Source: Planctomycetota bacterium
GTDB taxonomy: Bacteria; Planctomycetota; GCA-002687715
Length of the DNA: 64,000 bases
Direction of reading: 5' to 3'
Assembly (NCBI GenBank): GCA_002683135.1
Contig: NYSS01000005.1
Coordinates: 166,834-230,833, forward strand
The position numbers were made by a program, and so were the translations under genes. This document shows, in pieces, positions 8,501-28,484 of the stretch. A model generated the notes under the pieces. The model did not search any database. It saw nothing but the letters and a program-made list of their open reading frames with translations, and was not told where the DNA came from. Every line of letters begins with the position of its first letter. Position 1 is the first letter of the stretch.

Positions 8501-9272
8501 GCGCTGTCGGGAAGGCCGTCGGCGGCGTGACCACCATGATCGTGTTGCGGTCCACCACCGTGACCTGGGCGGCCGGCTGGGCGCCGAACAGGATCATGGG
8601 CGGCAGCACCGTCCAGTCCGACTGGGCAAGGAAGTTGTCCCCCGTGATCGTGACGAGGGTGCCACCCGACTCCGGCCCCTCAGTGGGTGTAATGCTCGTG
8701 ATGACTGGGATCAATCCCTCCGCCTCCGGGTCGACGAGTTGGAACCGGACGGGGTTCGAGAGGAGGAGCCCCGCGCCGCCGGGCGCGTCCGCGCACACGG
8801 CCTGCATCGTCAGGGTCTGGGCGGGAGATAGCAGAGGGAACAAGGGGTCGAACAGGTGTATCGCCAGGGTCAGAGTCAGCGTGTTGGTCGGGCCCTGCAG
8901 AGGGGGACCATAGGTCGGCGCGAACGGGTCGGCGAAGGAATCGAACAAGGCAATCGGGGGAGGTGTCATCGACGTGGTGTCGATGAAGACGAGCCCTTCA
9001 GGGAACACGGATGGCGTCGGGTCGTCGAGGCCGATGTAGAGGGCGACCGGGCGCGGGATGAGTTGAGCCGGAGGCGGTGTCGTGACCGTGGGAGACGAAG
9101 ACAGCGTCACGATTAGCTGCTCGGTGCGCACGATGTTCGGCAAGGTTGTCGGTGGCGATGCCTGGCCAGCGGCGAAGCTGTTCACGTCGACGGGTACGAG
9201 GGAGATCGTGTGGGTCTGGGCGGAAAGGGTCGTCGCGAGAAGAAGGGCGACCGTGATCGTGGTGACTCTCAT
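5595..9272 (-). CDS. Very large secreted IPT/TIG and glycine-rich protein (paralogue 1)
   Basis: The 1225-residue protein has a signal peptide (MRVTTITVALLLATTLSAQ) and several IPT/TIG Ig-like domains; the clearest begin PVITSITPTEGPESGGTLV (about residue 190) and PTVTEIFPAIAVATGNTFV (about 530). The last third is rich in glycine, with runs such as GGSGGAGGGGGLAIF and GGRGGNGGGCVVLIS between beta-like hydrophobic strands. No catalytic motif is seen. It is probably exported or surface-attached. It follows a second protein of the same plan by 11 bases, so the two form an operon and probably arose by duplication. The partner of the IPT domains cannot be told from sequence. Confidence 0.8.
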   Translation of the reverse strand: MRVTTITVALLLATTLSAQTHTISLVPVDVNSFAAGQASPPTTLPNIVRTEQLIVTLSSSPTVTTPPPAQLIPRPVALYIGLDDPTPSVFPEGLVFIDTTSMTPPPIALFDSFADPFAPTYGPPLQGPTNTLTLTLAIHLFDPLFPLLSPAQTLTMQAVCADAPGGAGLLLSNPVRFQLVDPEAEGLIPVITSITPTEGPESGGTLVTITGDNFLAQSDWTVLPPMILFGAQPAAQVTVVDRNTIMVVTPPTAFPTAPPMTAACSVDVTFANNPLIAPTGAAITAPTPFLYKTGQGPAAAGFSTPTGSPEGGYARQIQGSWFLDGLTVTFTSQANPALTVTLTAPEAVAGPGGTTVDILSMPPFCTGPVDVVVDNCDGETSNAVTFTYLPLQPFHIGGTPTVTAAPELGGFTYIAINAAGTSVTLTGTNFLPPTSPLAAASTVPAGSFFPTRVFQDGVLQPAFTATSGTSIAASTSAFAATTMFRPELGFRELRLENPPCVNTGTATPISSPLCLGFTPPCVIVLQDALPPTVTEIFPAIAVATGNTFVDIRGNNFFSLQPGVTVQDFTPFAAPGGGIPAVDPTQIVVPAVQFGARFAEQVEILDEQTLRVKVPPAAFTNIATGVGVTVHNPDLQPATASLTFKYVPPLTDPTNLLDPMVPKLDSNALEAIAAGDPGAQAPGIVPMLSGGPVTAPAITVIQNPSPLRDQAQDPKSPPPGETWSYDYVFLLNTRLNGPPPGGTRRFEFDCIELPETIELVNGGFAFVPPIDPTAPALFAPGSIVTIPASVNPSNPGVVSKLRVIVKAVGYTLSADSRIQFDPADNPPLVLMSHSDLIVDGMIDCAGDAFMIEGYLNLQGVTVGGPFRVRVDRTIPPAGAGQGGRGGTWFPENRPQIPGPNFGVGPGILAGMAGFPPSGRFDSTTTAPAIRTEGTGGLGAAPIGVQSGAGGGAGHVVPGSNGTSGTSPGGLAGLSFGNTTNALPVPVVGTPNDDRFIFGANGNDFAGFSDGTAFSSGLLYGGSGGAGGGGGLAIFIPALTLGGRGGNGGGCVVLISDRLLVIGDGGAIFAQGEQGQLGVDAFPVYNGDPVIPVNLPGGGGGGAGGTVLGLAIANVCFAYGPATVCGPSMSGAPAPPSFLQVDVSSAASGPQTTPEGLMDPGVPAGGASSEGRIRFAISAQSPYGAEFTSTIDTLFDPIIPVIGPMPPGAATVPGTLYPAGYYTFPQN

Positions 9273-9283
9273 GTGCTACGCCC

Positions 9284-12277
9284 CTACCAGCCCGTGGTAT
9301 CCGCGATTGGGTTTACGACCGCCGCCCCGTCGACCTGGGGCGTCGCGATGCCCATGGCGGGCAGCGTGAAACGAATCATGCCGAGGCTGCCGGGGCCCCC
9401 GTCGTTGATCCCGATGAGGGCTCCTGGCCCCGCCAGTCCACCGCGGGCGGTGAGAACAGCGGATGCGTTGACGGCGATCCCCTGGGTCGCCTGCAGCACC
9501 AGGCCACCCCCCGCTCCTCCTCCACCTCCGGCCCCAGGCAGGGTGCCGGTGATGACGTCGAAGGCGCCGGCCGTGCCGTCCTCGCCGTCGAGGTCGATGA
9601 CGCCGTTCATCGTGATGGTGCCATCCGCGGCTATCAGGATGCCGCCGCCCCCGTTGCCGCCCGAACCTGACAGGCCAATTGATGACGCTGCTGGCCCTGG
9701 GAAGTACGGCAACGCCGTGCCGAGGCCTCCAGCCGCGCCACCGCCGCCGCCGGGCGGGTCAAAGAACTCGGTGCCGTCACCGGCGCCCGCGATGGCGAAG
9801 GGGAGGTTCGCGAAGCCGAGGGCCGCGCCGCCGAGTCCGCCGGTGGGGGTGCCGCTGAAGCCGAGGCCCATGGCGCCGGGGAATGCCATGCCGCCGCCGC
9901 CGCCGCCGCCGGGCTGGACCGGCCCATGAAAGCCGCCGAGACCGAAGTTGTTGAACGGGACAAGCGCCAGCGAGTTGATCGGTCCGAGTCCGGGGAGGCC
10001 CGAGGCCACGCCCTGGAGGAGGTCCACGTCTCCGCCTCGTCCACCGGGGCCTCCGCCTGCGGGCGGTGCTCCCGTTGCGGGTATGGGCCCCGGAGCGCTC
10101 GCGAACGAGTCGCCGGACAGGTCGATCAACCCGTCGATCACGATGTCGCCTCCGGCGCGGATGATGACCGGACCGACACCGAACGCTTCGATGATCGTCG
10201 CGACGTCGATCGTGAGGTCCTCCGTGAACTCATAGATATTCGGTATCAGGAGCACGCCGGTGTTGAGGGTCAGCGTGCCCGGACCTGGGCCGAAGGTAGA
10301 TCCGGTCGCTCCGACGAGCGAGCGGACGATCCAGAAGTCGTCGGCTGTTCCCGCCGTCGTGGCTTGCTGGCCGTCGGGGTTGCGGAGGATCGCCTCCACT
10401 TGCATGGGCAACGGCAGCCCCAGGGCGGTGAGGTTTGGCGTTGTCAGGACGAGGTTCTGATCGTCGATGATGGTGATGTTAGCGAAGGCCGACTCCAGGA
10501 TCGTCCCACCAAGGCCGCTCGCCCCCAGGAGCGTCGCGTTACTCGACGGCAGCACGGTGTCGTTGGTAAAGAACCCCGCGCCAACGACGCTGATCGACTG
10601 ACCGCCGTTCTCGCGCCCCACGTTGTTCGGTGCGATCGAGATGATCTGCGGGGCTGCCATGGCGAAATAGGTGAACCCGTTGCCGGGCTCGGTGGCGGGC
10701 ACCGCGCTGAACGTCAGGTGCGGGCTGCCGCTCGGCTCGAGGCAGGGAGGCAGGATGAGCTGCGCGTACTTGGTGCCGGCGTTGCCGATCCCGCCGCTCG
10801 TGAGCCCCGGAGGGTTGAGCCCGGGGGGCAGGTCGGGGATGAGCGCCTCGATCACGAACTGACCTGGTGCGGGCGTCTGCACCGAGACGATGGGGAGCGC
10901 CGCGCTCGCGTCGGTCCCGTCCAGGTTTGAGCCGAGGTTCACCGTCGCCAACCCCGAGCGCGAATCCAGCGCGGTGTAGGACCCCATCGCCGGACAGGTC
11001 CCGGAGATGAAGATGGTCCCGCCGCCGGTTCCCTCGACGACGTTCGGCGGGTTGATCCCGGTCACGGTGACGTTGGCGAGGAGTCCGGGGCGAAACAGGG
11101 CGAATTCGGTTGCGGGCGGCGCGAGGACCGTCTCCTTCGGGGAAGACGGGAAGTGGTCGATATTGCGGACGACCACCTCGAAGAGGCCACCTGAGAGGCC
11201 CACCGGCGGGGTGGAAAAATCGACCTGAGTGTTGGTAATCGCGGAGGGCGTGAAGGTCGTTGGGCTCCCACCTTGGCTGAACCGCACCTCGGCACCTAGT
11301 AGGAAGCCGGCGCCCGTGATCGCGACCGCGCAATTGCCCGCAGTGAGGCCCGCCTGCGGTGTCATGGAGGTGAACACCGGGGTGATCCCGGTCTGGTAGA
11401 CGAGGTACGTCGGAGCGGAGAAGTCCCCCGGGGCCGGGCTCGTCGTCGTCGTTGCGGCGGGGTTGCCCGCGTTATAGAGACCGGTCGATCCGAAGTCGAC
11501 GCGGATCAGCGCCAACCCAGCTGAGGTCGTGGGCGGCGTGGGGATAGGACCCAGAGAGGGAGGCGCTACGACCATCAGCGCGGGCAGCACCGCGGGGCCG
11601 GGGTCATTGTCGATAAGGACGACCGAGAGCGCGTCGGATTCGTTGCCGGGGGTGGTCGTCGAGAGGAAAGACACCCGCGGGACGGTCATCGTCGCGCGTT
11701 CGAGAAATCCGGCCCCACTGATGATGATGGTCGGCGCTGACCCCTCTTGCACGACCTGTACGTCAAGCGTCGTGATGGAGGGTGACGTGGGGGGCTCATC
11801 GACGATGATGTCGACGCTGTTCGAGAACGCCATGGCCTCACCGCCCGGGCTCGTGGGCTGCCCGACGACAGCTTGCAACGCGAAGCCCACAGGCAACGGT
11901 ACCGGCGCGCCGAGGTCCGGGGGAACGCGAATCGAAAACGACACGGCGCCATTGCTGTCGAGCACGAGTGGGAAGCTGCCGCCAAAGAAACCGAGGCCGT
12001 CGTAGGGCCCGAATGGTCCGATCGTGAAGGGGTCGATGCCGAGCGCCCCGCTGAAGCCAGGGACGGTCATGGGCGTGGCGAGGGGGTTGCCCATGAACAG
12101 CGTCACCGGTCTGCCGCCTCCTCCGGCCGACGAGATGGAGATGGTGAGCATCTCGGTGCGGATGAAGGGCCCCGCGCCTCCGTCGTACGCGGAGGCGACC
12201 GAGAGCGACGGCGCCTGGGCGATGAGCGGTGGGCAAATGACGGCGCAGGTGATGAGGAGGCGAAGAGTCCGTTCCAT
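9284..12277 (-). CDS. Very large secreted IPT/TIG and glycine-rich protein (paralogue 2)
   Basis: The 997-residue protein starts at ATG 12277, where a GAGG site and a signal peptide (MERTLRLLITCAVICPPLIAQ) agree; the open frame extends 11 codons further without support. IPT/TIG-like segments include SPSITTLDVQVVQEGSAPT, PVFTSMTPQAGLTAGNCAV, GINPPNVVEGTGGGTIFI and ISIAPNNVGRENGGQSISV. A glycine-rich region then alternates GG-rich runs with short strands (residues about 730 to 950). The plan and the C-terminal pattern (DLSGDSF, GGPGGRGG, IDLDGEDG) match the downstream gene, which begins 11 bases after its stop. Function is unknown. Confidence 0.8.
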   Translation of the reverse strand: MERTLRLLITCAVICPPLIAQAPSLSVASAYDGGAGPFIRTEMLTISISSAGGGGRPVTLFMGNPLATPMTVPGFSGALGIDPFTIGPFGPYDGLGFFGGSFPLVLDSNGAVSFSIRVPPDLGAPVPLPVGFALQAVVGQPTSPGGEAMAFSNSVDIIVDEPPTSPSITTLDVQVVQEGSAPTIIISGAGFLERATMTVPRVSFLSTTTPGNESDALSVVLIDNDPGPAVLPALMVVAPPSLGPIPTPPTTSAGLALIRVDFGSTGLYNAGNPAATTTTSPAPGDFSAPTYLVYQTGITPVFTSMTPQAGLTAGNCAVAITGAGFLLGAEVRFSQGGSPTTFTPSAITNTQVDFSTPPVGLSGGLFEVVVRNIDHFPSSPKETVLAPPATEFALFRPGLLANVTVTGINPPNVVEGTGGGTIFISGTCPAMGSYTALDSRSGLATVNLGSNLDGTDASAALPIVSVQTPAPGQFVIEALIPDLPPGLNPPGLTSGGIGNAGTKYAQLILPPCLEPSGSPHLTFSAVPATEPGNGFTYFAMAAPQIISIAPNNVGRENGGQSISVVGAGFFTNDTVLPSSNATLLGASGLGGTILESAFANITIIDDQNLVLTTPNLTALGLPLPMQVEAILRNPDGQQATTAGTADDFWIVRSLVGATGSTFGPGPGTLTLNTGVLLIPNIYEFTEDLTIDVATIIEAFGVGPVIIRAGGDIVIDGLIDLSGDSFASAPGPIPATGAPPAGGGPGGRGGDVDLLQGVASGLPGLGPINSLALVPFNNFGLGGFHGPVQPGGGGGGGMAFPGAMGLGFSGTPTGGLGGAALGFANLPFAIAGAGDGTEFFDPPGGGGGAAGGLGTALPYFPGPAASSIGLSGSGGNGGGGILIAADGTITMNGVIDLDGEDGTAGAFDVITGTLPGAGGGGGAGGGLVLQATQGIAVNASAVLTARGGLAGPGALIGINDGGPGSLGMIRFTLPAMGIATPQVDGAAVVNPIADTTGW

Positions 12278-12571
12278 GACAGGCCTCGTGATCAGCAACG
12301 GGCGACCCAAGACGAAAGCGCAAGCTCCCGATCCCCGCGCGCCCCTTTAGCGTCCCCTTCCAGCCCGAAATGGGCAGGAAGTCCCTTTACGTATGCATCT
12401 TACGGCAGAACAGGCTGCCCAAGCAACCGGGACACCCTCAGCGGCTCATCGCGGGGCGGGGTTCCCAAAAGCCCGGTAGCCCCGAACAATGGCCGGTGCG
12501 GCTGTCATGGGGAGCGGGTGGGGCACCCGTTTCCCCCCGCCGCGCCTCAAGTTACCTGCGACCTCAACCTC
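12278..12571. other. Divergent intergenic region
   Basis: These 294 bases separate the minus IPT operon from the plus FHA-FtsZ-like gene and should hold both promoters. I see no convincing -35/-10 pair, operator repeat or small gene. The frames that cross it lack start signals and protein-like composition. Confidence 0.6.
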
Positions 12572-14248
12572 ATGGCGGAACTGCAGGTCCTCAACGGACC
12601 GCTGCAATGGAAGACTTTCAAGATATCCGGCCCGCGGTTTCTCATGGGCCGGCAGGACACCTGCCATCTCGTGCTGAACGACGGGTGGGTCTCCCGTGAG
12701 CACGCGGTGGTCATCGAGGCGTCAGCAGGCGAATACACGGTGCAAGATCTCGGCAGCGAGAACGGGATCTTCGTCAATGGGGCGCGGGTCCAGGACAGCA
12801 AGCTGAAGCACGCGGACATCTTGCGCGTGGGGCGGACGGAGATGCGCCTGTTCAACCCGACCGGCGAGGAGAGCGGCGTTGACCTGGGGGCGTTCACCCG
12901 CCCGTCGGGGGCTGGGCTGCCCGAGCCGTCGGAGGCCGCGAACCTCGACATGACCATTCACGAGCCCGGCGCGCTCAAGGTGGAGCGGCCCGACCTGCGG
13001 GATCGCGTCCGGCGTCTCGAGAAGCTCCTCAACGTGAAAGAGGAGGACAACAGTCGTCTCGCGGCAGAGAACGCGGTCCTCAAGCGCACGCTTGCCCAGG
13101 GCGGGCTGATCGACCCGGCTACAGGTCACGTCGACCTCCGACGGCTGACGACGTCCGCTCCCCGCGAGGCGCTGTCCCGGGACCTCTTGCCCCTGATCGG
13201 GAATCCGGCGTTCAGCGTTACCTGGCCGCTTTGTGACGGAGGCAGCATCGGTCAACTTGCGGCGGGGGACATCGCCCTCGGCGCGCATCGGCTCGGGATC
13301 GTGGGACTCGGGCGCGGGGGCGTTCGTATCGCGGACGCGATGCACGCCCTGGGGTGGCGGCACGTCGCGGCCGTCGCGGCCGACGCCGAGGTGATGGCGA
13401 CGGTGCCATGGGAAACGACGCTCGAGCTGCCAGCGGGCCTCGAGGATGTCGGGGCGGTGGGGGCGCTGGTCGAGGAGCGTCGCCCCGAGATACGCACCCT
13501 GCTGTCGGCCGCCTTGGGCGTGGACCGGACACTCCACCTCATCACGGTCGGGCTTGGAGGCGCCACTGGCATCGGCAGCATCCCGGTTGTTTTGGGGGCG
13601 CTCCAGGCGCTCGATCCAGACACCCCATGCGGCGTCATCCTCTCCGTCCCATCGACCGCGTCTGCGACGGCGGCTCACCGCATGGCGACGATGCGCGATG
13701 GGGTCAAGACGGTGCTGCGGCTGCACGACGCAGGGAAGATTCGCCCGTTCGTGCTGTTTGACGAGTCGCGGCTAGAGCGGATCGTAGGGGAGCAGGCCCG
13801 CTCGGCCCAAAACGCGACGATCGCGGGCCTCATAGACACAGTGGTGCGGTTGCCGGCGCTCCCGTCCATTGGCGGTGACGTCGACTCCGACGCGTTGCGG
13901 ACGTGCCTAGGGACCGAGGGGATGAGCTCATTCGGGCTCGCCGCCGCGAAGGAGACGGACGGAGCCTCAATCGGCGCTGCTTTGCGGCACGCGCTCAGTG
14001 ATGGTTGGCTGTGTTCGCGCGTCGCGCCATCCCGGGGCCGTACGACGGTTGTCCTGGCCATGATCGGTAGCGACGTTCTCGCTGAGGACGCCTCCGTGGC
14101 GAACCGTGTCGGGGCTGCGATCGAGGAGGTCTCGGAGTTGTTGCCGCAGGCGGAGGTCTCGAAAGGAATCTACGAAGATTGTGGGCAAGGAGTGCGCATC
14201 GTGGCCTGGGTCGGGGGGCTTCCTTTCCCGGAGAGTTTGGCGGTCTGA
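12572..14248 (+). CDS. FHA domain fused to an FtsZ/tubulin-like GTPase
   Basis: The 558-residue protein starts at ATG 12572, where the FHA fold begins. Residues about 5-95 are an FHA domain with G26-R27, S41-R-x-H44, N64-G and N69-G, the residues that bind phosphothreonine. Residues about 140-175 form a heptad-like coiled coil. From about 240 the chain follows FtsZ: glycine loop GLGRGGVRIAD (245-255), a tubulin-signature equivalent GGATGIG (329-335, canonical GGGTGTG), then GVILSVPSTASATAAHRM and DGVKTVL, ESRLERI, the long helix with an acidic T7-like loop DVDSD (436-440), and a second FtsZ-like C-terminal domain ending in a VRIVAWVGGLP strand. Family knowledge: GTP-dependent filament proteins. 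The fused phosphopeptide reader and the neighbouring PP2C and kinase suggest phospho-controlled assembly. Whether it hydrolyses GTP or polymerises is unknown. Confidence 0.75.
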   Translation: MAELQVLNGPLQWKTFKISGPRFLMGRQDTCHLVLNDGWVSREHAVVIEASAGEYTVQDLGSENGIFVNGARVQDSKLKHADILRVGRTEMRLFNPTGEESGVDLGAFTRPSGAGLPEPSEAANLDMTIHEPGALKVERPDLRDRVRRLEKLLNVKEEDNSRLAAENAVLKRTLAQGGLIDPATGHVDLRRLTTSAPREALSRDLLPLIGNPAFSVTWPLCDGGSIGQLAAGDIALGAHRLGIVGLGRGGVRIADAMHALGWRHVAAVAADAEVMATVPWETTLELPAGLEDVGAVGALVEERRPEIRTLLSAALGVDRTLHLITVGLGGATGIGSIPVVLGALQALDPDTPCGVILSVPSTASATAAHRMATMRDGVKTVLRLHDAGKIRPFVLFDESRLERIVGEQARSAQNATIAGLIDTVVRLPALPSIGGDVDSDALRTCLGTEGMSSFGLAAAKETDGASIGAALRHALSDGWLCSRVAPSRGRTTVVLAMIGSDVLAEDASVANRVGAAIEEVSELLPQAEVSKGIYEDCGQGVRIVAWVGGLPFPESLAV

Positions 14249-14304
14249 CGCCACGGGGCGGTCGGTACGCTATCGGGGTTGATGACGTTGGTTGGGAGAC
14301 GGGA

Positions 14305-15555
14305 ATGGACATCCTGAATCGCGCACGCGGAGCGCTGTTGGGGATGGCAGTGGGTGAAGCTCTCGGGGCTCCGTTGGACGGATTGAGTCCGGAGGAGATC
14401 GAGGAGAAGGTCGGTCGCATAGACGGCTTCCTCGATCCGGCTGATACCCAGCCGGCGTATCGGTCTGGATACTTCACTCACCGGGCGTACGAGGACGAGA
14501 CCCAGGTCGCGTTGGCGACCGCAGAGACCCTGGTCGAGGACGCGGAGCTCCAGGCAGAGGGGCTCAGGTCGCGGCTCGAAGAACTCGGTCGACCCGTCGA
14601 GGGCAACGCGTTCGGTTGCTATCGGCGAGCCCGGCGTAACTTCCGCACCGCGGTCCGGCGCATGCTTGAGGGAGCGCCGTGGCAGGAGTGTGGCGTGAAC
14701 ACCGCCGGCGCCGGAGCGGCCAGTCGAGGTATTCCGATCGGGATCTGGTACCGCGATGAGCGGGATGGACGGCTTCGCGCGAGCGTCGAGGCGACGTTGT
14801 TGACGCATCGTGATCCCCGCGCGTGCGCAGCGACGGTCAGCGTGGCTGAGGCCGTGGCTGTCGCATTGGCTGCTGAGACATCCGACGCCCTACGTCCGGA
14901 GGCTGCCGCGTCCGCCATCGCCGCTTCCTGCCGCGACGCCGAGCGGCTCATGGAAGAGGAATATTCGGAGGTCCTGTATCCGGGATACCAGCCGTACCTG
15001 CATCAGTATTCGGACTCCACTTCGTTGCTGTCAGACCTCGTGCAGCTTGACATCGGGCCCGCGTTCGAGCGCATCGTCAAGCAGGCCTCCGATAAGGGGT
15101 CTCGGCCGATCACGTCTGCGACCCGCGGTTTTTCGCTGACGGCGGTCGTGTCGTCGCTGTATCTGTTCCTCACGGGCCTCGAGTCGTTTGAGGACACCGT
15201 GCTGGACACGATCTGCGAGGGCGGCAGCGCCGATACGCTCGGCTGCCTCGTCGGCGGCCTCTCCGGGGCCCTCCATGGCGTCGATGGAATTCCCGCGGAG
15301 TGGCGCGGGTCGCTCAAGAACAATGAGCATGTCGACGCCTACGGCGCCGCCCTCGTGGGGGGGGGCGACCGAGCGGCGTTGGCGCCGCTAGCTCTCACCG
15401 AGGCGTCGGTGACGCTTCCGGCCCCGCCGGGCCTTCGCAAACGATCGAGGCGGCGCCCAGACCCTCGCCCTTCGGCTCGGGGCCGGGGTGGCGCCGGGCG
15501 CCGCAAGGGAGGTGGTGGGCCTTCTATGGGAGGTGGTCGTGGAGGCGATCGATAG
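14305..15555 (+). CDS. ADP-ribosylglycohydrolase (ARH/DraG-like) family protein
   Basis: The 416-residue protein starts at ATG 14305 behind a GGGAG site. ARH-family marks are RGALLGMAVGEALGAP (residues 8-23), YEDETQVALATAETL (62-76) and GGSADTLGCLVGGLSGALHG (306-325), then IPAEWRG. The family removes ADP-ribose from proteins or nucleic acids using two metal ions held by a Thr-Asp-Asp set and a GGDxDT motif. Here the set reads E63-D64-E65-T66 and the second motif has S308 where an Asp is usual, so metal binding may be weaker or altered. The last 40 residues are Arg/Gly/Pro-rich and look disordered. It lies 56 bases after the FHA-FtsZ-like gene on the same strand, probably co-transcribed. Confidence 0.8.
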   Translation: MDILNRARGALLGMAVGEALGAPLDGLSPEEIEEKVGRIDGFLDPADTQPAYRSGYFTHRAYEDETQVALATAETLVEDAELQAEGLRSRLEELGRPVEGNAFGCYRRARRNFRTAVRRMLEGAPWQECGVNTAGAGAASRGIPIGIWYRDERDGRLRASVEATLLTHRDPRACAATVSVAEAVAVALAAETSDALRPEAAASAIAASCRDAERLMEEEYSEVLYPGYQPYLHQYSDSTSLLSDLVQLDIGPAFERIVKQASDKGSRPITSATRGFSLTAVVSSLYLFLTGLESFEDTVLDTICEGGSADTLGCLVGGLSGALHGVDGIPAEWRGSLKNNEHVDAYGAALVGGGDRAALAPLALTEASVTLPAPPGLRKRSRRRPDPRPSARGRGGAGRRKGGGGPSMGGGRGGDR

Positions 15556-15633
15556 AATGCGGTTCCTGGACCGAACGGGGTCCGGCAGTAGGTTCGGATT
15601 GCCTAAGAGAACTCAGGGAGTTATCGGAGAGTC

Positions 15634-16689
15634 GTGAGCAGCAACGCTGTGCCGAGCCCGTCCTGGCGTAAGGACGTTGAAGTGGGAGCCCTCTCCCACG
15701 TGGGGATGGTCCGGTCCGAGAACCAGGACCATTGGGCCTGGTGGGAACCCGAAGACGACGAAGACCTGAAGGGCAAGGGCCGGGTCCTCGTCGTCTGCGA
15801 CGGCATGGGCGGCCACAACGGTGGCATCGTGGCCAGCCGCACGACGGTCGAGGCGATGCTCGAGTCGTTCGACAAGTCGGCGACCTGCAACCTCAAGCGC
15901 CTGCTATCGACAGCGATCGACAGGGGCAACGCCTTGGTTCGGACGAAGGGGCAGGAGGATCCCGCGCTTCGCAACATGGGCACGACTTGCGTCGCCATTG
16001 CTCTGCGCGGTCCCCAGGTCCAGATCGCGAACATTGGCGACAGCCGGGCTTACCGGATCCACGACGGCCAGATCGAGCAGGCGACCCGCGACCACACGTA
16101 TTTGAATGACCTCATCGAGATCGGCCTGCTTACACCAGAGAAAGCCAAGAACCATCCCGAGCGCAACATCATCACCCGTTGCGTCGGCATGGGCGACGTG
16201 GTCCAGGTGGACTTCATCACGCGACCGGCTGAGGCGGGTGACCTGTTCTTGCTTTGCTCTGACGGCTTGTACAACCACGTGGAAGATGACGAGATCTGCG
16301 AGTGCGCCTCCACGTATGCGCCTGAGGAGGCCGCGCAGAAGCTCGTCGACCTCGCAAACAGCCGCGGCGGCGAAGACAACATCACGGTCGGTATCATCCG
16401 AGTGACGGAGACACCGCCGGAGTTCGAAGTGGCCAACAGGGAACACCCTGTCGACGCGGCTGAGGACGAAGGACCCGAGACCCCGACTCCGATCATGACT
16501 ATTGGATCGGACGAGGCGACGCCTTCGATCCCGGCGCCGATTGCTGGAAACCCTGGAAACGACATCACTGCGCTGCAGCAGCAGGTGAGCATCGATCTGC
16601 CCCGGACGGGCATGAAGGGGTGGATGATCCTGCTAGCCGCCGAGCTGATCATCTTGATTATTCTCCAGGCGTTGATTTTGGGGCACTGA
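15634..16689 (+). CDS. PP2C-type Ser/Thr phosphatase with C-terminal membrane anchor
   Basis: The 351-residue protein starts at GTG 15634, five bases after GGAG. PPM/PP2C motifs occur in order: VGMVRSENQD (residues 23-32), VVCDGMGGHNGG (53-64, metal-binding Asp56 and Gly), GTTCVAIAL, IANIGDSRAYRI, ATRDHT, NIITRCVGM, LLCSDGLYNHV and NSRGGEDNITVGII with the last metal Asp. The fold ends near residue 265; a Pro/Glu-rich linker leads to one hydrophobic helix (about 329-350) at the C-terminus, placing the phosphatase domain in the cytoplasm. It ends 11 bases before a kinase-FHA gene, the usual phosphatase-kinase pairing, so it probably reverses that kinase's phosphorylation. Confidence 0.93.
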   Translation: MSSNAVPSPSWRKDVEVGALSHVGMVRSENQDHWAWWEPEDDEDLKGKGRVLVVCDGMGGHNGGIVASRTTVEAMLESFDKSATCNLKRLLSTAIDRGNALVRTKGQEDPALRNMGTTCVAIALRGPQVQIANIGDSRAYRIHDGQIEQATRDHTYLNDLIEIGLLTPEKAKNHPERNIITRCVGMGDVVQVDFITRPAEAGDLFLLCSDGLYNHVEDDEICECASTYAPEEAAQKLVDLANSRGGEDNITVGIIRVTETPPEFEVANREHPVDAAEDEGPETPTPIMTIGSDEATPSIPAPIAGNPGNDITALQQQVSIDLPRTGMKGWMILLAAELIILIILQALILGH

Positions 16690-16700
16690 GTCGACCACCA

Positions 16701-18209
16701 ATGATCGGGACACGCGTCGGAGATTGGCTCATCACGGAGGAACTGGGAGACGGGGGGCACGCCTTCGTCTTCAAGGGAGTGCGTGATGGGGAGGTGGCCG
16801 CGATCAAGATGCTGAAGCCATCGGTCGCGAGCGAGGAGAACCTAGAGAAGCGTTTCAAGATTGAAGTCGAGGCGCTGAAGAGCCTGGACCATCCAGGAAT
16901 CGTCGGGTTCAAGGACTACCTGTGTGTTGGCGGGTATCACTACCTCATCCTGGAGTGCATGGACGCGGGTGCGATTGACCACCTCCTGCGTGTGAACGGT
17001 GCGTTGGAGGCGCGATACGCGCTGCCGATCTTCTACATGATCCTGGATGGGATGAGCTTCGCGCACTCCTTCGGCTACATCCACAGGGACGTCAAGCCGA
17101 ACAACATCCTGCTCAACAAGAGGGGCGAAGCGAAGGTCACCGACTTCGGCATCGCCAAGGTCGTTGGTGGCGAAGACTTGACCAGGCAGGGCTTCGTGCT
17201 GGGGACGACCCTGTACATGGCTCCGGAGTACCTGTCGCAGGGGGTCGTTTCTCCGCAGACGGATATCTATGCGTTGGGGGTCTTGCTGTACGAGATGCTC
17301 ACGAATCGGAAGCCGTTCGAGTTCGAGACCGACGATGAGCTGCCTGTGCAATTTGCGAAACGCGTGTGCACCGGGAATCCGCCACCTCCGAGCGTCTACC
17401 GTCCGATCCCCCCGGCGCTGGAGAAGATCGTCATGAAGGCGATCGCTCGCGATCCGAAGAAGCGGTATCGGCAGGTCGACAAGTTCCAGGCGGACTTGAA
17501 GAAGGCGTTTCCGGAGCTCGTCGAGCGGCCGATCGAGATCCCGGAGGGTCGCCCCAAGACCAGCGCTGTTCAGATCATCGGGGATGTCGCGGCCGGCGCC
17601 GGTCGGTCCCCCGCGGCGGGGTCCAACCCCTGGCTTGCTCTTGGTGCCGCAGGGCTCGCCGCCGCCGTGGTGGGGCTGGTCGCCGCGTTCGTTTTCGGTC
17701 AGGGCGCGGGGATCTCGAGCATCGCTGGGCTGCTGTCCGCCGCCCTCGCCATCGCCTTCACCATCAAGCAGCGGCGCCCGGCGCCGATTTCGAGGACGGA
17801 AGAAGCGACCTTGGACGCGTCAGCCGACGACTCGAGCGACCCCTTGCCGTTTCACGGCGGCGTCGCGCCCCAGGGCGAGGTCGAGGAGACCAACATCTCC
17901 GAGCTCAACGCCTTCCTCGAGGTCACCGAGGGGAAGGCCAAGGGCAAGCGCTATGGCGTTCGCCCCATCTCCCGTATCGGCCGCGATCTTCGCTTCGACA
18001 TCCGTCCACACGATCCCGAGATCTCGCGTCACCACGCGATGATCACCTTCACTGGCACGGGCTTCATCGTGAAGGACACGGGCTCGACGAATGGGACCTT
18101 TGTCAACGAAAACAAGGTGGCGCCTGGCACCGAGGCAGACCTGGAACACGGGAATATCCTCCGAGTGGGTCGCACCTCGATGAGGTTCGAGCACCAGAGG
18201 TCGGGCTAG
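16701..18209 (+). CDS. Hanks-type Ser/Thr kinase with TM segments and C-terminal FHA domain
   Basis: The 502-residue protein starts at ATG 16701, 11 bases after the phosphatase stop. The kinase domain (about 8-275) has the Gly-rich loop ELGDGGHAFVFKG, K36 in VAAIKML, H128-R-D130 with KPNN, D148-F-G and APEYLSQG; all catalytic residues are present. Two hydrophobic helices follow (about 311-335 and 342-359), then an acidic linker and an FHA domain (about 405-495) with IGRD, SRHHAMI and GSTNGTFVN. Both the kinase and the FHA domain should face the cytoplasm if the two helices form a hairpin. FHA domains bind phosphothreonine, so the kinase may recruit its own products. Its stop overlaps that of the convergent gene by four bases. 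Confidence 0.93.
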   Translation: MIGTRVGDWLITEELGDGGHAFVFKGVRDGEVAAIKMLKPSVASEENLEKRFKIEVEALKSLDHPGIVGFKDYLCVGGYHYLILECMDAGAIDHLLRVNGALEARYALPIFYMILDGMSFAHSFGYIHRDVKPNNILLNKRGEAKVTDFGIAKVVGGEDLTRQGFVLGTTLYMAPEYLSQGVVSPQTDIYALGVLLYEMLTNRKPFEFETDDELPVQFAKRVCTGNPPPPSVYRPIPPALEKIVMKAIARDPKKRYRQVDKFQADLKKAFPELVERPIEIPEGRPKTSAVQIIGDVAAGAGRSPAAGSNPWLALGAAGLAAAVVGLVAAFVFGQGAGISSIAGLLSAALAIAFTIKQRRPAPISRTEEATLDASADDSSDPLPFHGGVAPQGEVEETNISELNAFLEVTEGKAKGKRYGVRPISRIGRDLRFDIRPHDPEISRHHAMITFTGTGFIVKDTGSTNGTFVNENKVAPGTEADLEHGNILRVGRTSMRFEHQRSG

Positions 18210-19570
18210 CGATCCGAACGGTTGATGGGTTCGGTGGTCGCGGTCTCGGCGTGACGCAGCAGGCCCTGTATGGCGACCGAGCTGATGGCCCAGCCGGTGA
18301 GGTCCCGCCCCAGGGAGATGCCGATCAACTCATCCCCTGCGAATAGCGGCGTGCCGGCCGCTGGGGGCAGGGGCATGGCGTCGAGGTCGAACGCGAGGAG
18401 GGTGGCCGACTCAGGCTTCACGGCGCCCTTGTCCGCGTTGGTGAGCCGCCGAACCCCAAGGTCCTGAGGGGATTCCCAGGGCGGATAGAAGCGGAGCGTC
18501 CCGGCGCGCGGCGCGGCGGTGAGGGCTCGGGCCAGACGGGCGCTCTGGTCGAGCACGAGAAGGACGAGGTTGCCGTCCTCGCTCTTGCCAGCCGCCGGGT
18601 GAAGGACTCGTGCCTTGACCGGCTTCGCGCTAGCGAGGGAGCCCCCCGGTGCGGCCAGGAGCACCTTGGTGTGGCGTCCGTCAACGGTACCCCGGCGCAG
18701 CCAGGCCTTGAGCCGGAGGTCCACGTCGTAAGTGGTCGCGATGGCTTCGGTGCGGACGACCGCCCCGAAGCCGAGCGTCTCCTGGTCAACGAACCTGCCG
18801 CGATCATCACGGACCACGCCGAGGAGGCGTACGACCGTTCCACGAGGGCCGGCCGGCACGACCCCCGGTGCTCGCTTGGGGGTCGAGGTCTTCGGCCGAC
18901 GGATGGCGCCGGACCCAATGGGCGACATCCCGGCGCCGATGGTGTCACCGGCACTGCCATCCTGCTTGCGGGTCTCAAGGGTCTCGATTCGATCGAGAAA
19001 GTGCCGCACCAGGATGAATCCGCCGATGAGCAACGCGCAGAAGACCATCAACGCGATGGCGACGACGATGCGCCGTCGCACGAGGCGAGGCGGCGCAAGG
19101 GACGCGGGGTCGAGCAGCTGGCGTTCTTCGGCGGTAGCGCCGATGTAGTGGGGCTCACGGTCCGACAAACGCGCGGGTTCTTGCTCTGGAGCCTCTGAGG
19201 TTACGGGGGGAGACGACGCTGATCCGACGGCGAATCGGATACGGGGCCCTTCCCGTCCGAGCCCGAGCTGGTCGCCGTCGGCGAGGGGTGCTCGCCGGAT
19301 GCGGCGGTCGTTCACGTAGGTCCCGTTGAGGCTGCCCACGTCATAGATAATGGGGATGCCGTCTTCGACTCGAATTTCGCAGTGCCGGTGGGAGACGGAG
19401 CGCTCTCTCTCGGCGTCGAAGGAGCAATGGTTGTTCTTGCCGCGCCCGATCGAAATGCGGGTTCCCGTGAACCGCTCCTCCGTCCCCTTTCGGTGACCGG
19501 TGAGGTGGCGCAGCGCGATGTGAAGCGCCTTCTCTCCCGGCTTCTTTACTTCGGAATCGGAGATCGTCAC
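18206..19570 (-). CDS. FHA domain-TM protein with trypsin-like C-terminal domain
   Basis: The 454-residue protein is placed at GTG 19570 because its GTGA overlaps the stop of the upstream gene, a coupled start; an earlier GTG at 19651 would add 27 unsupported residues. An N-terminal FHA domain contains SIGRGKNNHC, SVSHRHCEI and GSLNGTYVNDR. A Glu/Pro-rich linker leads to one membrane helix (RRRIVVAIALMVFCALLIGGFILV), a Thr/Pro-rich stretch, and an exported C-terminal domain ending GTPLFAGDELIGISLG-like, the shape of the last strands of trypsin-like serine proteases. The usual GDSG is not seen, so activity is doubtful. It is the third gene of the dual-kinase operon and probably links phosphorylation inside to a domain outside. 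Confidence 0.75.
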   Translation of the reverse strand: MTISDSEVKKPGEKALHIALRHLTGHRKGTEERFTGTRISIGRGKNNHCSFDAERERSVSHRHCEIRVEDGIPIIYDVGSLNGTYVNDRRIRRAPLADGDQLGLGREGPRIRFAVGSASSPPVTSEAPEQEPARLSDREPHYIGATAEERQLLDPASLAPPRLVRRRIVVAIALMVFCALLIGGFILVRHFLDRIETLETRKQDGSAGDTIGAGMSPIGSGAIRRPKTSTPKRAPGVVPAGPRGTVVRLLGVVRDDRGRFVDQETLGFGAVVRTEAIATTYDVDLRLKAWLRRGTVDGRHTKVLLAAPGGSLASAKPVKARVLHPAAGKSEDGNLVLLVLDQSARLARALTAAPRAGTLRFYPPWESPQDLGVRRLTNADKGAVKPESATLLAFDLDAMPLPPAAGTPLFAGDELIGISLGRDLTGWAISSVAIQGLLRHAETATTEPINRSDR

Positions 19571-22497
19571 CGCTGCTTTATCCGAATGGGGTGCACCCTC
19601 GTCAGCCCCCAGCCCGTCCCACGAGCGAAAAGGGGCGCGACCAAGTGGCACCCGTCTTTGCTGGGACTGCTCTCGCCTCGAACGCCGAAGGGCTCGCTGC
19701 GGACCAGTTTCCAGGCGTTTCCGGTCGTGCCCGAGGATCCCGAGTCCCCGCGAGAACGAACACTCGATGACCTCGGACCGTCCAGCCCACCGTAACCGAA
19801 TCTGGGCAGGTGGCCTGATCCTATCGCTCTGCAGCAGTTGAGGTTCGAGCAGTTCTTGCCGTTCCCCTGGCCGGGTTGACCCAGGCCGATCGTATGGGAT
19901 GCCGCGACGGGAGGGTTTTCCTCTCGACCCTCCGGCGGCGCCTGTCGCACGGTGGGGCCGCGTGGATGGTCGAGCCGTTCTTCGCCCCCCTCTTCTCTCA
20001 CCCTGCGGATTTCGTTCAGAAAGGCGGACCGTTCTCCTTCGAGGAGGTGCTTTGCGGATGCTTTCCGCACGGCGCTCTCGATCGCGGCGAGCTCCTTGCG
20101 GGCGGCCTCGCCCCCGCGACCTGCGACGCTCTCGCGCACCTTCTGCAGCCGGTCCTTCAGCACCTGAGGGATTGAGTAGGGCGTCAGCTCGGCGAGGAAT
20201 CGAATCGCTCGCTCCTTCCCCGCGACGTCCCGTACGACGAGGACCAGCGGCCCTTTTCCTGGCGGCGTCGCCGGATCACCCAGGGCTCCTCCTTCACCGA
20301 GGGGGAGGTCGCCGTCGCCCAGCGTCGCCCGGACGACCATGCCGTTGGTCACCTTTACGACGAGCTCGGACGGCCGTTTGAGCTGGATCGGTCCGTCGTG
20401 TCCGACCACCTCGCCGTTGTGAAGCAGGTCGATCACCACCGCGGGGACCACCGCAGGGGTGACCACTTTGAACGCGAGCCCGGTCACGTTTCCCGCGGCG
20501 TCGCGCGCGCGGATCATCATCGCGGCGGGGAGGACCTCGGGAACGCCTACCACGAGCGTGACGACGTCGCCGTTCTTCTTGCGCGCGAGGACGACAGTTC
20601 CCGTGACCGTGATGTCGGCATCGCCTCCTGCTTCCTCGACCGTGATCTCAAGGCGCGTTCCCGGGCTGGCCTCGAAGGTGTCGCGTGGCCCGTCCTCTGC
20701 CGGGTCCCAGGCGCCGATCCGGATTGTTGGAGGGACGTGATCGACCCGAAGCCTCGCCGTGGCGAGATGGCGGCTGTCGCGACTATCAGTGAATCGGATT
20801 TCGCGGTCCGCCATGGCCTGATCCGCGACATCGAGGACGACGCTCAGCGCCGAGCTTCCGCTGTCGCCGAGCTCATGGGTCCCGTGCTTGAAGACGGTTC
20901 CACCACGCGGTTCCAGCAGTGTCCACAGGATCGCCCCTTCGCCGTCGTGGGTCAGGGCGAACGCGACCTTTCCGTGGGTGACGGCGATGGCATCCAACCC
21001 GACGTCCACGCCATTCACCTTGATGGTACGGAGACGAATCGGCTGGCGCGCTCGGATTGGAAACGACCGCTCAGGGGTCGCGTTTCCGAGGGCATCCTCC
21101 GCCTGCACGACGACGCCTCCTTTGGCGTTCTCGGGGACGCGCAGGCGACGGGACTCTGACCTGGGGCCCTTCTGTGCACCTGCGGGGGAGAGCCCGGTCG
21201 GGATGATGCGTACCGGGCCGAGGCCGTTCTCGTCTTCGAGGACGACCTCGATCACGCTGCCCTGCTCTAGCACGGTCACGGTGTCTTCGAGCAGCGGTTT
21301 GCCAGCGCAGCTGACGGTGATGGAAGGTGCGGCGGTGTCGGCGTGGACGACCCACGTCCTCAGGACGGCGGAGCCGCGCAGCAGGCTGATGCCGGTCTTG
21401 CCCGAATGCTTGAGCTTCACGGACGCGACGAGGTGCCGCCCCTCGACGCGCAAGGGGACGGCTGCAGCCCCATCCGTGCGTACGCCCATGCCGACCACGT
21501 GGGCGGGGATGCCGGGGTGCAGGGCGACGCGTAGCTCGTGCTCGAGTCCAGCGACCGCCACTCCGTGGGTCGCGAGGACCGTGTCCGAGAGCAGCACTTC
21601 AGAGACGGGAAACCAGCGCTCGTCTTTCACGTCGAGGGTGAAGGACGTCGTCGTCGTCGTGTCGAGCTGGTTCCTCGCCGTGACTTCGATCTGGAGCGGC
21701 CCCTCGGATCCGATCAGGTTGGCGGGGAGAGCCACGCGGACGCTGGATTTTTCGAGCCCGGAGACGGCGTCCTCATCGTCGCCTGCGACCCACGAAACGC
21801 GAGACAGGCCTCGCTCGTCCGTGACCTCGATCGTCACTGGCGCTCCCGGGGGGACCAGGATGCGGGTCGAACCGTCGGCGGAGGGACTCACGGGTTCGTT
21901 CTCGCCGACGGTCACGTTGATCACGGGGCAGCCTCGATCGAGCCGCAACCGCATGGTGCCGTCGAGCACGTGGTCGACGGTCGTCCCGTCGGGCAGCTCG
22001 ATGACGGCCGTGATCGGCAGCGTCATCGCCTCTCCCGACTCGGGGAGGCTGATAAGCGTGGAGACGGTGTCGTTCTCAAGCCGGACTTCTTCGTCGCCGA
22101 AGGTCAGCGCGCGGAGGGGCCCCACGAGGTCGGCTGGCCGGATCCGTGCGCTCACCCGTATGGGGCTTACGCCGAAGAGAAGTTCTCCTTCGGCGCTGGG
22201 GTCGAACGAACGCTTGCCCACCCTCTGGATCGGGTGATGCCTTTGGAGGGCCAGGGAGACCACATGTATCGTCAGTTTTTTGCAGCGTTCCGCTTGGTTC
22301 TTCGTCAGCGTGTCTCGTTTCTCGAGCTCGCGAAGGGCTGTCAGGGCACGTCCGATGGACCCGTCCGTGAGGCGCTGCTCCGCCCGTTCGAGGAGCGCGT
22401 CGTCTTGCATCAAGGAGGACAACCGGCGGGCGCTGAGAAGGATGGGAATCAGGAGCAGGATGGCAACGATCATGCAGAGGAGCGCGCGGCGATCCAT
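19567..22497 (-). CDS. Membrane-anchored protein with repeated Ig-like exported domains
   Basis: The 976-residue protein starts at ATG 22497, two bases after the stop of the dual-kinase gene and downstream of a GGAGGGGG run. A single N-terminal helix (ALLCMIVAILLLIPILL) is followed by a helical pair-like stretch (ERAEQRLTDGSIGRALTALRELEKR) and then many beta-sandwich-like segments (for example GAPVTIEVTDERGLSRVSWV, PSITVSCAGKPLLEDTVTV, PPTIRIGAWDPAEDGP), so most of it is outside the cytoplasm. The last 130 residues are rich in Gly, Ser, Arg and Cys with relaxed codon use and do not look like the rest; a frameshift near residue 855 is possible. It resembles the external region of the upstream kinase receptor and may act with it. 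Confidence 0.7.
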   Translation of the reverse strand: MDRRALLCMIVAILLLIPILLSARRLSSLMQDDALLERAEQRLTDGSIGRALTALRELEKRDTLTKNQAERCKKLTIHVVSLALQRHHPIQRVGKRSFDPSAEGELLFGVSPIRVSARIRPADLVGPLRALTFGDEEVRLENDTVSTLISLPESGEAMTLPITAVIELPDGTTVDHVLDGTMRLRLDRGCPVINVTVGENEPVSPSADGSTRILVPPGAPVTIEVTDERGLSRVSWVAGDDEDAVSGLEKSSVRVALPANLIGSEGPLQIEVTARNQLDTTTTTSFTLDVKDERWFPVSEVLLSDTVLATHGVAVAGLEHELRVALHPGIPAHVVGMGVRTDGAAAVPLRVEGRHLVASVKLKHSGKTGISLLRGSAVLRTWVVHADTAAPSITVSCAGKPLLEDTVTVLEQGSVIEVVLEDENGLGPVRIIPTGLSPAGAQKGPRSESRRLRVPENAKGGVVVQAEDALGNATPERSFPIRARQPIRLRTIKVNGVDVGLDAIAVTHGKVAFALTHDGEGAILWTLLEPRGGTVFKHGTHELGDSGSSALSVVLDVADQAMADREIRFTDSRDSRHLATARLRVDHVPPTIRIGAWDPAEDGPRDTFEASPGTRLEITVEEAGGDADITVTGTVVLARKKNGDVVTLVVGVPEVLPAAMMIRARDAAGNVTGLAFKVVTPAVVPAVVIDLLHNGEVVGHDGPIQLKRPSELVVKVTNGMVVRATLGDGDLPLGEGGALGDPATPPGKGPLVLVVRDVAGKERAIRFLAELTPYSIPQVLKDRLQKVRESVAGRGGEAARKELAAIESAVRKASAKHLLEGERSAFLNEIRRVREEGGEERLDHPRGPTVRQAPPEGREENPPVAASHTIGLGQPGQGNGKNCSNLNCCRAIGSGHLPRFGYGGLDGPRSSSVRSRGDSGSSGTTGNAWKLVRSEPFGVRGESSPSKDGCHLVAPLFARGTGWGLTRVHPIRIKQR

Positions 22498-28343: not shown

Positions 28344-28371
28344 GCGGGGTCCGTGTGGGTCGGTCCGCTCG

Positions 28372-28402
28372 GCGCCGCTGTGTGCGCCGCTGTGTGCGCC
28401 GC
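28372..28402. repeat. 12-bp tandem repeat, 2.6 copies
   Basis: The unit GCGCCGCTGTGT occurs at 28372-28383 and 28384-28395, followed by a partial copy. It lies 29 bases upstream of the kinase start on the minus strand, in the likely 5' leader or promoter. If the open frame is extended it would encode GAHS repeats, which I regard as untranslated. Confidence 0.6.
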
Positions 28403-28484
28403 GACGTTTGAGAAATCCATAGTAGCAGTGGGCTAAACGTCCGGCAAACCCACTGTATGCCACGACTTGTGATATGTGCGCTTC

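What the first reader, a model, noticed from the sequence alone, without database searches (positions are those of the whole stretch)
12572..18209. FtsZ-like GTPase, ADP-ribosylhydrolase, PP2C phosphatase and kinase-FHA in one run of genes
Four same-strand genes encode a phosphopeptide reader on a cytoskeletal-type GTPase, a remover of ADP-ribose, a phosphatase and a kinase. FtsZ can be ADP-ribosylated by the Tre1 toxin of Serratia proteamaculans and freed by the ARH-type immunity protein Tri1 (established). An ARH gene beside an FtsZ-like gene therefore hints that this GTPase is controlled by both phosphorylation and ADP-ribosylation.
Basis: inference. Interest (0 to 1): 0.75.

Follow-up and report, generated by a model that had tools for sequence, protein, structure and literature searches.

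The report
FHA–decayed FtsZ gene beside phosphosignalling operon
In one order of uncultured planctomycetes, a kinase, a phosphatase and an odd ADP-ribosylhydrolase-like protein form a conserved gene set, to which some members have added a protein that joins a phosphate-reading domain to a decayed relative of the cell-division protein FtsZ; it suggests a bacterial cytoskeleton fold reused as a signalling part rather than an FtsZ switched by ADP-ribose.

Summary
The four + strand genes are real and where stated: FHA–coiled coil–FtsZ-like (12572-14248), ARH fold (14305-15555), PP2C (15634-16689), kinase–TM–FHA (16701-18209). All four stand in the same order in a second genus; the first two do in a third, whose contig then ends. 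The FtsZ-like domain belongs to the tubulin/FtsZ superfamily, but "GTPase" is not supported: the second catalytic Asp of loop T7 is gone in all three orthologues and the GTP-binding T4 loop is ruined in two. "Hydrolase" is doubtful: one Mg-binding Asp is missing in every ARH member of the order. The conserved unit is ARH–PP2C, usually with the kinase; three genomes keep ARH without the FtsZ-like gene upstream. So the ARH does not exist to serve the FtsZ-like protein, and the Tre1/Tri1 analogy fails (no counterpart of FtsZ Arg174). Best reading: a membrane-anchored kinase/phosphatase pair controls a phospho-reading scaffold made from a decayed tubulin-fold domain, with an ARH-fold, RG-tailed protein as constant partner. 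New variant of a known planctomycete theme (kinases linked to tubulin-like domains).

The parts
12572..14248 (+). gene 1: FHA domain – linker – coiled coil – degenerate tubulin/FtsZ-superfamily domain, 558 aa
   Evidence: start codon supported by the conserved N-terminus MA[ED]LQVLNGPLQW in G001 and G002
12572..12862 (+). FHA domain (residues 1-97); canonical phosphopeptide residues R27, S41, R42, H44, N64, N69 invariant in three orthologues; 70-74% identity
12953..12955 (+). Thr128 in the variable linker, invariant in three orthologues (besides T97 and S101 at the start of the linker); candidate phosphosite (inference)
   Evidence: alignments ([DE][LM]T[IVM]H)
12986..13147 (+). conserved predicted coiled coil and GL.D..TG.(V/I)D segment (residues 139-192); 65-74% identity
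   Evidence: coiled coil read from the heptad-like sequence, not predicted by a program
13274..14245 (+). FtsZ-like domain (residues 235-558); 41% and 29% identity to G001 and G002
13550..13576 (+). T4 (GTP phosphate-binding) loop GLGGATGIG; ALEDINGVG in G001, ATSEAASAQ in G002
13877..13894 (+). T7 loop DVDSDA: first catalytic Asp (E. coli D209) kept, second (D212) replaced by Ala (His in G001, Gln in G002)
14305..15555 (+). gene 2: ADP-ribosylglycohydrolase-fold protein, 416 aa; the only PF03747 protein found in this genome
14491..14499 (+). E63-D64-E65, in place of ARH3 T76-D77-D78 (Mg ligands)
15226..15237 (+). S308-A-D310-T311, in place of ARH3 D314-x-D316-T317; the first Asp is absent in all six members of the order
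15421..15552 (+). Arg/Gly-rich C-terminal tail (58% R+G, against 18% in the core)
15634..16689 (+). gene 3: Stp1-type PP2C phosphatase with C-terminal hydrophobic (membrane) segment, 351 aa, GTG start
16701..18209 (+). gene 4: Ser/Thr kinase – hydrophobic segment(s) – C-terminal FHA, 502 aa; catalytic Lys, HRD and DFG motifs present
9284..12310 (-). divergent neighbour with IPT/TIG domain, not part of the set; marks synteny with G001 (FtsZ-like gene present) and G003 (absent)

Best explanation
The run is a Ser/Thr phosphosignalling operon. A membrane-anchored kinase with its own FHA domain and a membrane-anchored PP2C phosphatase set the phosphorylation of threonines on shared partners. Their constant partner is a cytosolic ARH-fold protein with an Arg/Gly-rich tail and an altered metal site. 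In one subgroup a further cytosolic partner was added: an FHA reader joined through a coiled coil to a tubulin/FtsZ-fold domain that has lost residues needed for GTP-driven assembly and turnover. That protein most likely works as a phospho-dependent scaffold: kinase-made phosphothreonine (on itself, for example linker Thr128, or on an operon partner) is bound by the FHA domain, the coiled coil oligomerises it, and the tubulin-fold domain is used as a binding surface, not as a cytomotive GTPase; PP2C reverses it. Shown here: the genes, domains, conserved order, lost residues and independence of the ARH–PP2C pair from the FtsZ-like gene. Inferred: membrane topology, phosphosites, complex formation and scaffold role.
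For: ARH–PP2C adjacent in all five loci with readable sequence (window, G002, G003, G005, G006) and ARH–PP2C–kinase in three (window, G002, G006), in two GTDB families with ARH down to 36% identity. FHA–FtsZ-like gene directly upstream in window, G001 and G002. FHA (70-74%) and coiled coil (65-74%) are conserved while the FtsZ-like domain is not (29-41%), as expected if reading and oligomerisation are the selected functions. T4 and T7 residues lost; fold match retained even in the most decayed orthologue (low-confidence model). Kinase and PP2C catalytic motifs intact and hydrophobic anchors conserved. Precedents: tubulin-like domains are the commonest partner of cytoplasmic planctomycete kinases (PMC11032199), and an FHA protein docking on a phosphorylated pseudoenzyme is known for FhaA/MviN/PknB (PMC3601408).
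Against: No expression, interaction or phosphorylation data. Only three FHA–FtsZ-like sequences exist here. The window's own protein keeps part of the T4 loop (GLGGATGIG) and the first T7 Asp, so nucleotide binding is not excluded. In G003 the gene after PP2C is unrelated, so the kinase is not always linked. Fast divergence could also mean relaxed constraint.
Confidence: 0.45

Rival explanations
1. One reading: the FtsZ-like protein is a GTPase controlled both by phosphorylation and by ADP-ribosylation, the ARH protein removing ADP-ribose from it as Tri1 does for FtsZ.
For: Adjacency of the two genes in window, G001 and G002; ARH fold certain.
Against: ARH occurs without the FtsZ-like gene upstream in G003, G005 and G007. 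FtsZ Arg174 has no counterpart. Not Tri1 or DraG by model score. ARH metal site altered. No transferase domain among the flanking genes scanned.
Confidence: 0.05
2. The FtsZ-like protein is a working cytoskeletal element that stands in for FtsZ in these FtsZ-less planctomycetes, placed by its FHA domain.
For: No canonical FtsZ (PF00091) found in the genome (controls ring in 13 of 14 genomes); planctomycetes are reported to lack FtsZ (PMC6952346); true superfamily fold.
Against: Second T7 Asp lost in all three orthologues, T4 lost in two, fast divergence; absent from close relatives that must also divide, although some of those genomes are incomplete.
Confidence: 0.12
3. The FHA–FtsZ-like gene is merely a neighbour: it sits beside a separate ARH–PP2C–kinase operon without functional link.
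For: It is missing at the same place in G003, where the same divergent TIG gene faces ARH; the 56 nt gap could mark its own transcription unit.
Against: Kept next to ARH on the same strand in three genera at 40-49% overall identity, including G002 where the upstream neighbour is different; it carries an FHA domain like the kinase.
Confidence: 0.23
4. The set is a defence or toxin–immunity module (ARH as immunity protein, kinase as abortive effector).
For: ARH proteins can be immunity proteins; the kinase matches PADLOC kinase models.
Against: PADLOC matches of the kinase are to many models at once, along the general kinase domain; ARH and FHA–FtsZ-like match nothing there. Syntenic inheritance within the order with an intact Stp1-type PP2C.
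Confidence: 0.05

Closest known systems
FtsZ-like 1 (FtsZl1, Pfam Tubulin_2) proteins of Makarova & Koonin 2010 and their planctomycete fusions with protein kinase domains
   Same: Diverged tubulin-superfamily domain tied to Ser/Thr kinases; in planctomycetes a kinase domain is fused N-terminally (PMC9871819), and tubulin-like is the commonest domain associated with cytoplasmic kinases (PMC11032199).
   Different: No Tubulin_2 match here; fusion is to FHA, not kinase; neighbours are ARH and PP2C rather than vWA/OmpA proteins; T4/T7 decayed.
TubZ / CetZ / FtsZ
   Same: Predicted fold.
   Different: GTP-binding T4 loop and second T7 catalytic Asp not kept; FHA and coiled coil in front.
DraG / ARH1 / ARH3 / Tri1 ADP-ribosylhydrolases
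   Same: Full-length PF03747 match; several Mg ligands (D77, D316, mostly T317) kept.
   Different: ARH3 D314 replaced by S/N/A/G, T76 by E; RG-rich tail; linked to PP2C; under the DraG and Tri1 model cut-offs.
PknB–Stp/PstP kinase–phosphatase operons with FHA proteins (GarA, FhaA)
   Same: Linked kinase, PP2C and FHA proteins; Stp1 model passed by PP2C.
   Different: PASTA-kinase model not passed; FHA joined to a tubulin fold; ARH in the operon.

Membership tests
tubulin/FtsZ superfamily (fold) | tubulin/FtsZ fold and full-length homology to members | tested here: met
   PF00091 alone is below cut-off (20.7 against 33)
FtsZ/tubulin GTPases | T4 signature GGGTG[TS]G | tested here: not met
   GGATGIG in the window, EDINGVG in G001, SEAASAQ in G002
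FtsZ/tubulin GTPases | T7 loop with two catalytic Asp (E. coli D209, D212) | tested here: not met
   D209 kept, D212 to A/H/Q
FtsZ/tubulin GTPases | GTP hydrolysis and polymerisation | not testable with these tools
   needs protein
canonical FtsZ (TIGR00065) | model cut-off 295 bits | tested here: not met
   21 bits
FtsZl1 / Tubulin_2 (PF13809) | Pfam model match | tested here: not met
   no match for any of the three orthologues; the relative P0005 scores 20.6 against a cut-off of 27
ADP-ribosylhydrolase (PF03747) fold family | model match over cut-off | tested here: met
   162.6 bits against 26.2, residues 9-332
active ARH/DraG enzymes | Mg ligands E41, T76, D77, D78, D314, D316, T317 (ARH3 numbering, PMC9738213) | tested here: not met
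   window D, E, D, E, S, D, T; the D314 position is non-acidic in all six members of the order; D314A of ARH3 loses one Mg and binds ADP-ribose 44-fold less (PMC8141533). Activity itself not tested
Tri1 immunity proteins (NF041672) | model cut-off 490 bits | tested here: not met
   58.1 bits
DraG (TIGR02662) | model cut-off 337 bits | tested here: not met
   101.3 bits
Stp1-type PP2C (NF033484) | model cut-off 230 bits | tested here: met
   247.3 bits
PknB-type PASTA kinases (NF033483) | model cut-off 450 bits, PASTA repeats | tested here: not met
   245 bits, kinase domain only
FHA phosphopeptide readers | conserved Arg, Ser, His and Asn of the binding loops | tested here: met
   R27, S41, H44, N64, N69 invariant; binding not tested

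The most novel reading that the evidence does not exclude
A tubulin-superfamily fold has been turned into a non-catalytic, phosphorylation-gated scaffold (a pseudo-tubulin reader) that works with a pseudo- or altered ADP-ribosylhydrolase, so that two former enzymes serve as regulatory parts of one kinase–phosphatase circuit.
Probability: 0.3. Interest if true: 0.7.

Novelty: new variant of a known kind. Interest (0 to 1): 0.5.

Why it matters
Pseudokinases are well known as scaffolds; pseudo-tubulins are hardly known (own knowledge). A lineage in which an FHA reader is fused to a tubulin fold with lost catalytic residues, next to an ARH fold with a lost metal ligand, gives a compact case for testing how enzyme folds become signalling parts in planctomycetes, which are reported to lack FtsZ and are rich in Ser/Thr kinases. 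It also warns against reading function from neighbouring domain names: the ARH belongs with the phosphatase and kinase, not with the FtsZ-like gene.

Tried and rejected
Tre1/Tri1-type pairing: rejected as above. DraT-like transferase in the genome: none found, but the controls did not ring either, so uninformative. Promoter and terminator scans: one promoter-like site, on the other strand, and eight terminator-like sites, all inside genes, so no transcript could be defined; inverted repeats gave nothing. Defence module by PADLOC: only general kinase and phosphatase matches. First ARH alignment (A2) used the wrong strand for G002 and was discarded for A3. The genome-contig scan with the ARH alignment returned five MAG loci, the same ones already seen as G001, G002, G003, G005 and G007. 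More distant planctomycete ARH genes (G069, G134, G021) have no homologue of PP2C, kinase or FHA–FtsZ-like beside them. The loss of the D314 Asp is not special to the operon: G134 and G021 also lack it, while the Thr-to-Glu change at T76 is found only in the operon group. The structure model of the window's FtsZ-like domain is moderate (mean pLDDT 58.5, pTM 0.62), that of G002 poor (48.8); both match TubZ first. One phylum search failed on the server and was repeated with fewer genomes.

Full report
WHAT IS THERE. The window lies in a 251-kb contig of a 5.07-Mb planctomycete genome (phylum from the named relatives). Between 12572 and 18209 four + strand genes follow one another with gaps of 56, 78 and 11 nt. 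Pfam and NCBIfam give FHA plus a weak tubulin hit for gene 1, ADP_ribosyl_GH for gene 2, PP2C (Stp1 model passed) for gene 3, and kinase plus FHA for gene 4. The kinase has its catalytic Lys, HRD and DFG motifs, and the phosphatase its metal motifs; both carry a strongly hydrophobic stretch (PP2C at the C-terminus, kinase between kinase and FHA), kept in G002 and G006.

IS THE FtsZ-LIKE DOMAIN REAL. Direct model hits are below cut-off (PF00091 20.7 against 33 bits; TIGR00065 21 against 295). A phylum search with the three orthologues found, in three 99%-complete genomes of another planctomycete genus, a protein (P0005) that passes PF00091 (39.0 bits) and matches FtsZ structures over its length. 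Its profile comparison with our domain covers 326 columns at E 8e-15, and a reverse search with P0005 finds our gene at E 4e-21. The predicted fold of the window's domain matches TubZ, CetZ and FtsZ (Foldseek E 2e-10, Z 16-19). The superfamily assignment is therefore sound.

IS IT A GTPase. Aligned with E. coli FtsZ and P0005, loop T4 reads GMGGGTGTG in FtsZ, GAGGGTGGG in P0005, GLGGATGIG in the window, ALEDINGVG in G001 and ATSEAASAQ in G002. In loop T7 the first catalytic Asp (D209) is kept by all, the second (D212) by FtsZ and P0005 but replaced by Ala, His and Gln in the three orthologues. By contrast the FHA domain is 70-74% and the coiled-coil segment 65-74% identical to the window's, the FtsZ-like domain only 29-41%. 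The window copy may still bind nucleotide; the family as a whole does not keep what a cytomotive GTPase needs. This is inference from residues, not an assay.

WHAT TRAVELS WITH WHAT. G002 has all four genes in order; G001 has the first two and then its contig ends. In G006 (another family of the order) ARH, PP2C and kinase are contiguous, with the contig ending inside ARH. G003 and G005 have ARH–PP2C; in G003 the next gene is unrelated, in G005 the contig ends. Upstream of ARH there is no FHA–FtsZ-like gene in G003, G005 or G007. In G003 the gene facing ARH is the same TIG-domain gene that faces the FHA–FtsZ-like gene in the window and in G001, so the locus is the same minus one gene. No full-length copy was found elsewhere in those genomes, though several are incomplete. 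Whether this is gain in one subgroup or repeated loss is not settled.

THE ARH PROTEIN. It is the only PF03747 protein found in the genome. At the seven positions that bind Mg in ARH3 (E41, T76, D77, D78, D314, D316, T317; PMC9738213) the window has D, E, D, E, S, D, T. The D314 position is S, N, N, A, A or G in the six members of the order, and T76 is always Glu. In ARH3, D314A loses one Mg and binds ADP-ribose 44-fold less (PMC8141533). Two of three more distant planctomycete ARH proteins also lack D314 but keep T76; one (G069) keeps all seven. A Glu in place of T76 might partly compensate; activity must be measured. The tail is Arg/Gly-rich in the members (31-62% R+G against 16-19% in the core), most strongly in window, G001, G002 and G007.

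ABOUT TRE1/TRI1. Tre1 modifies Arg174 of FtsZ and Tri1 removes the ADP-ribose (PMC7827354). Arg174 falls in a gap in the three orthologues, gene 2 is far under the Tri1 model, and its constant partner genes are PP2C and kinase. The analogy was reasonable from names but does not hold.

MOST LIKELY WORKING. See best explanation. The candidate phosphosite T128 is one of the few invariant residues of an otherwise variable linker; self-binding of a phosphothreonine by the same protein's FHA domain is known for GarA (PMC5448819), and FHA docking on a phosphorylated pseudoenzyme for FhaA/MviN/PknB (PMC3601408). These are precedents, not tests.

NOVELTY. Tubulin-like domains tied to planctomycete kinases are known (PMC2875224, PMC9871819, PMC11032199). 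I rate it a new variant of a known kind.

Noticed in passing
L064 1459-2778 (-), L065, L066; L068 1489-2529 (-): Three 99%-complete planctomycete genomes of one genus carry a 440-aa FtsZ-superfamily protein with intact T4 (GAGGGTGGG) and T7 Asp pair and a Lys-rich N-terminus, plus a decayed paralogue; this bears on the statement that planctomycetes lack FtsZ.
   Followed up: partly
G050:C206:1159-1614 (L093), G119:C529:6468-6845 (L092), G148:C187:2386-2775 (L095): Three further planctomycete genomes have PF00091 matches over the cut-off (68.5, 82.4, 41.8 bits); they are fragmented assemblies, so contamination is possible.
   Followed up: no
window 22500-28463 (-): A 1987-aa protein with two kinase domains in tandem, a weak Ig-like match and a C-terminal FGE-sulfatase-type domain.
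   Followed up: no
window 18206-19651 (-): FHA protein convergent with the kinase gene, with a possibly protease-like remainder (read by eye, no Pfam match); a homologue of its FHA part lies beyond the kinase in G006 (L055 2898-3314).
   Followed up: partly
L089 7731-9413 (+): An ARH protein with all canonical Mg ligands and a tail of (Y/Q)DRGG repeats in a more distant planctomycete, without homologues of the kinase or phosphatase beside it.
   Followed up: no
window 5595-12310 (-): Two long secreted-looking TIG-domain proteins with Gly-rich C-terminal parts, kept as a pair in G001 and, as far as the contig reaches, in G003.
   Followed up: no
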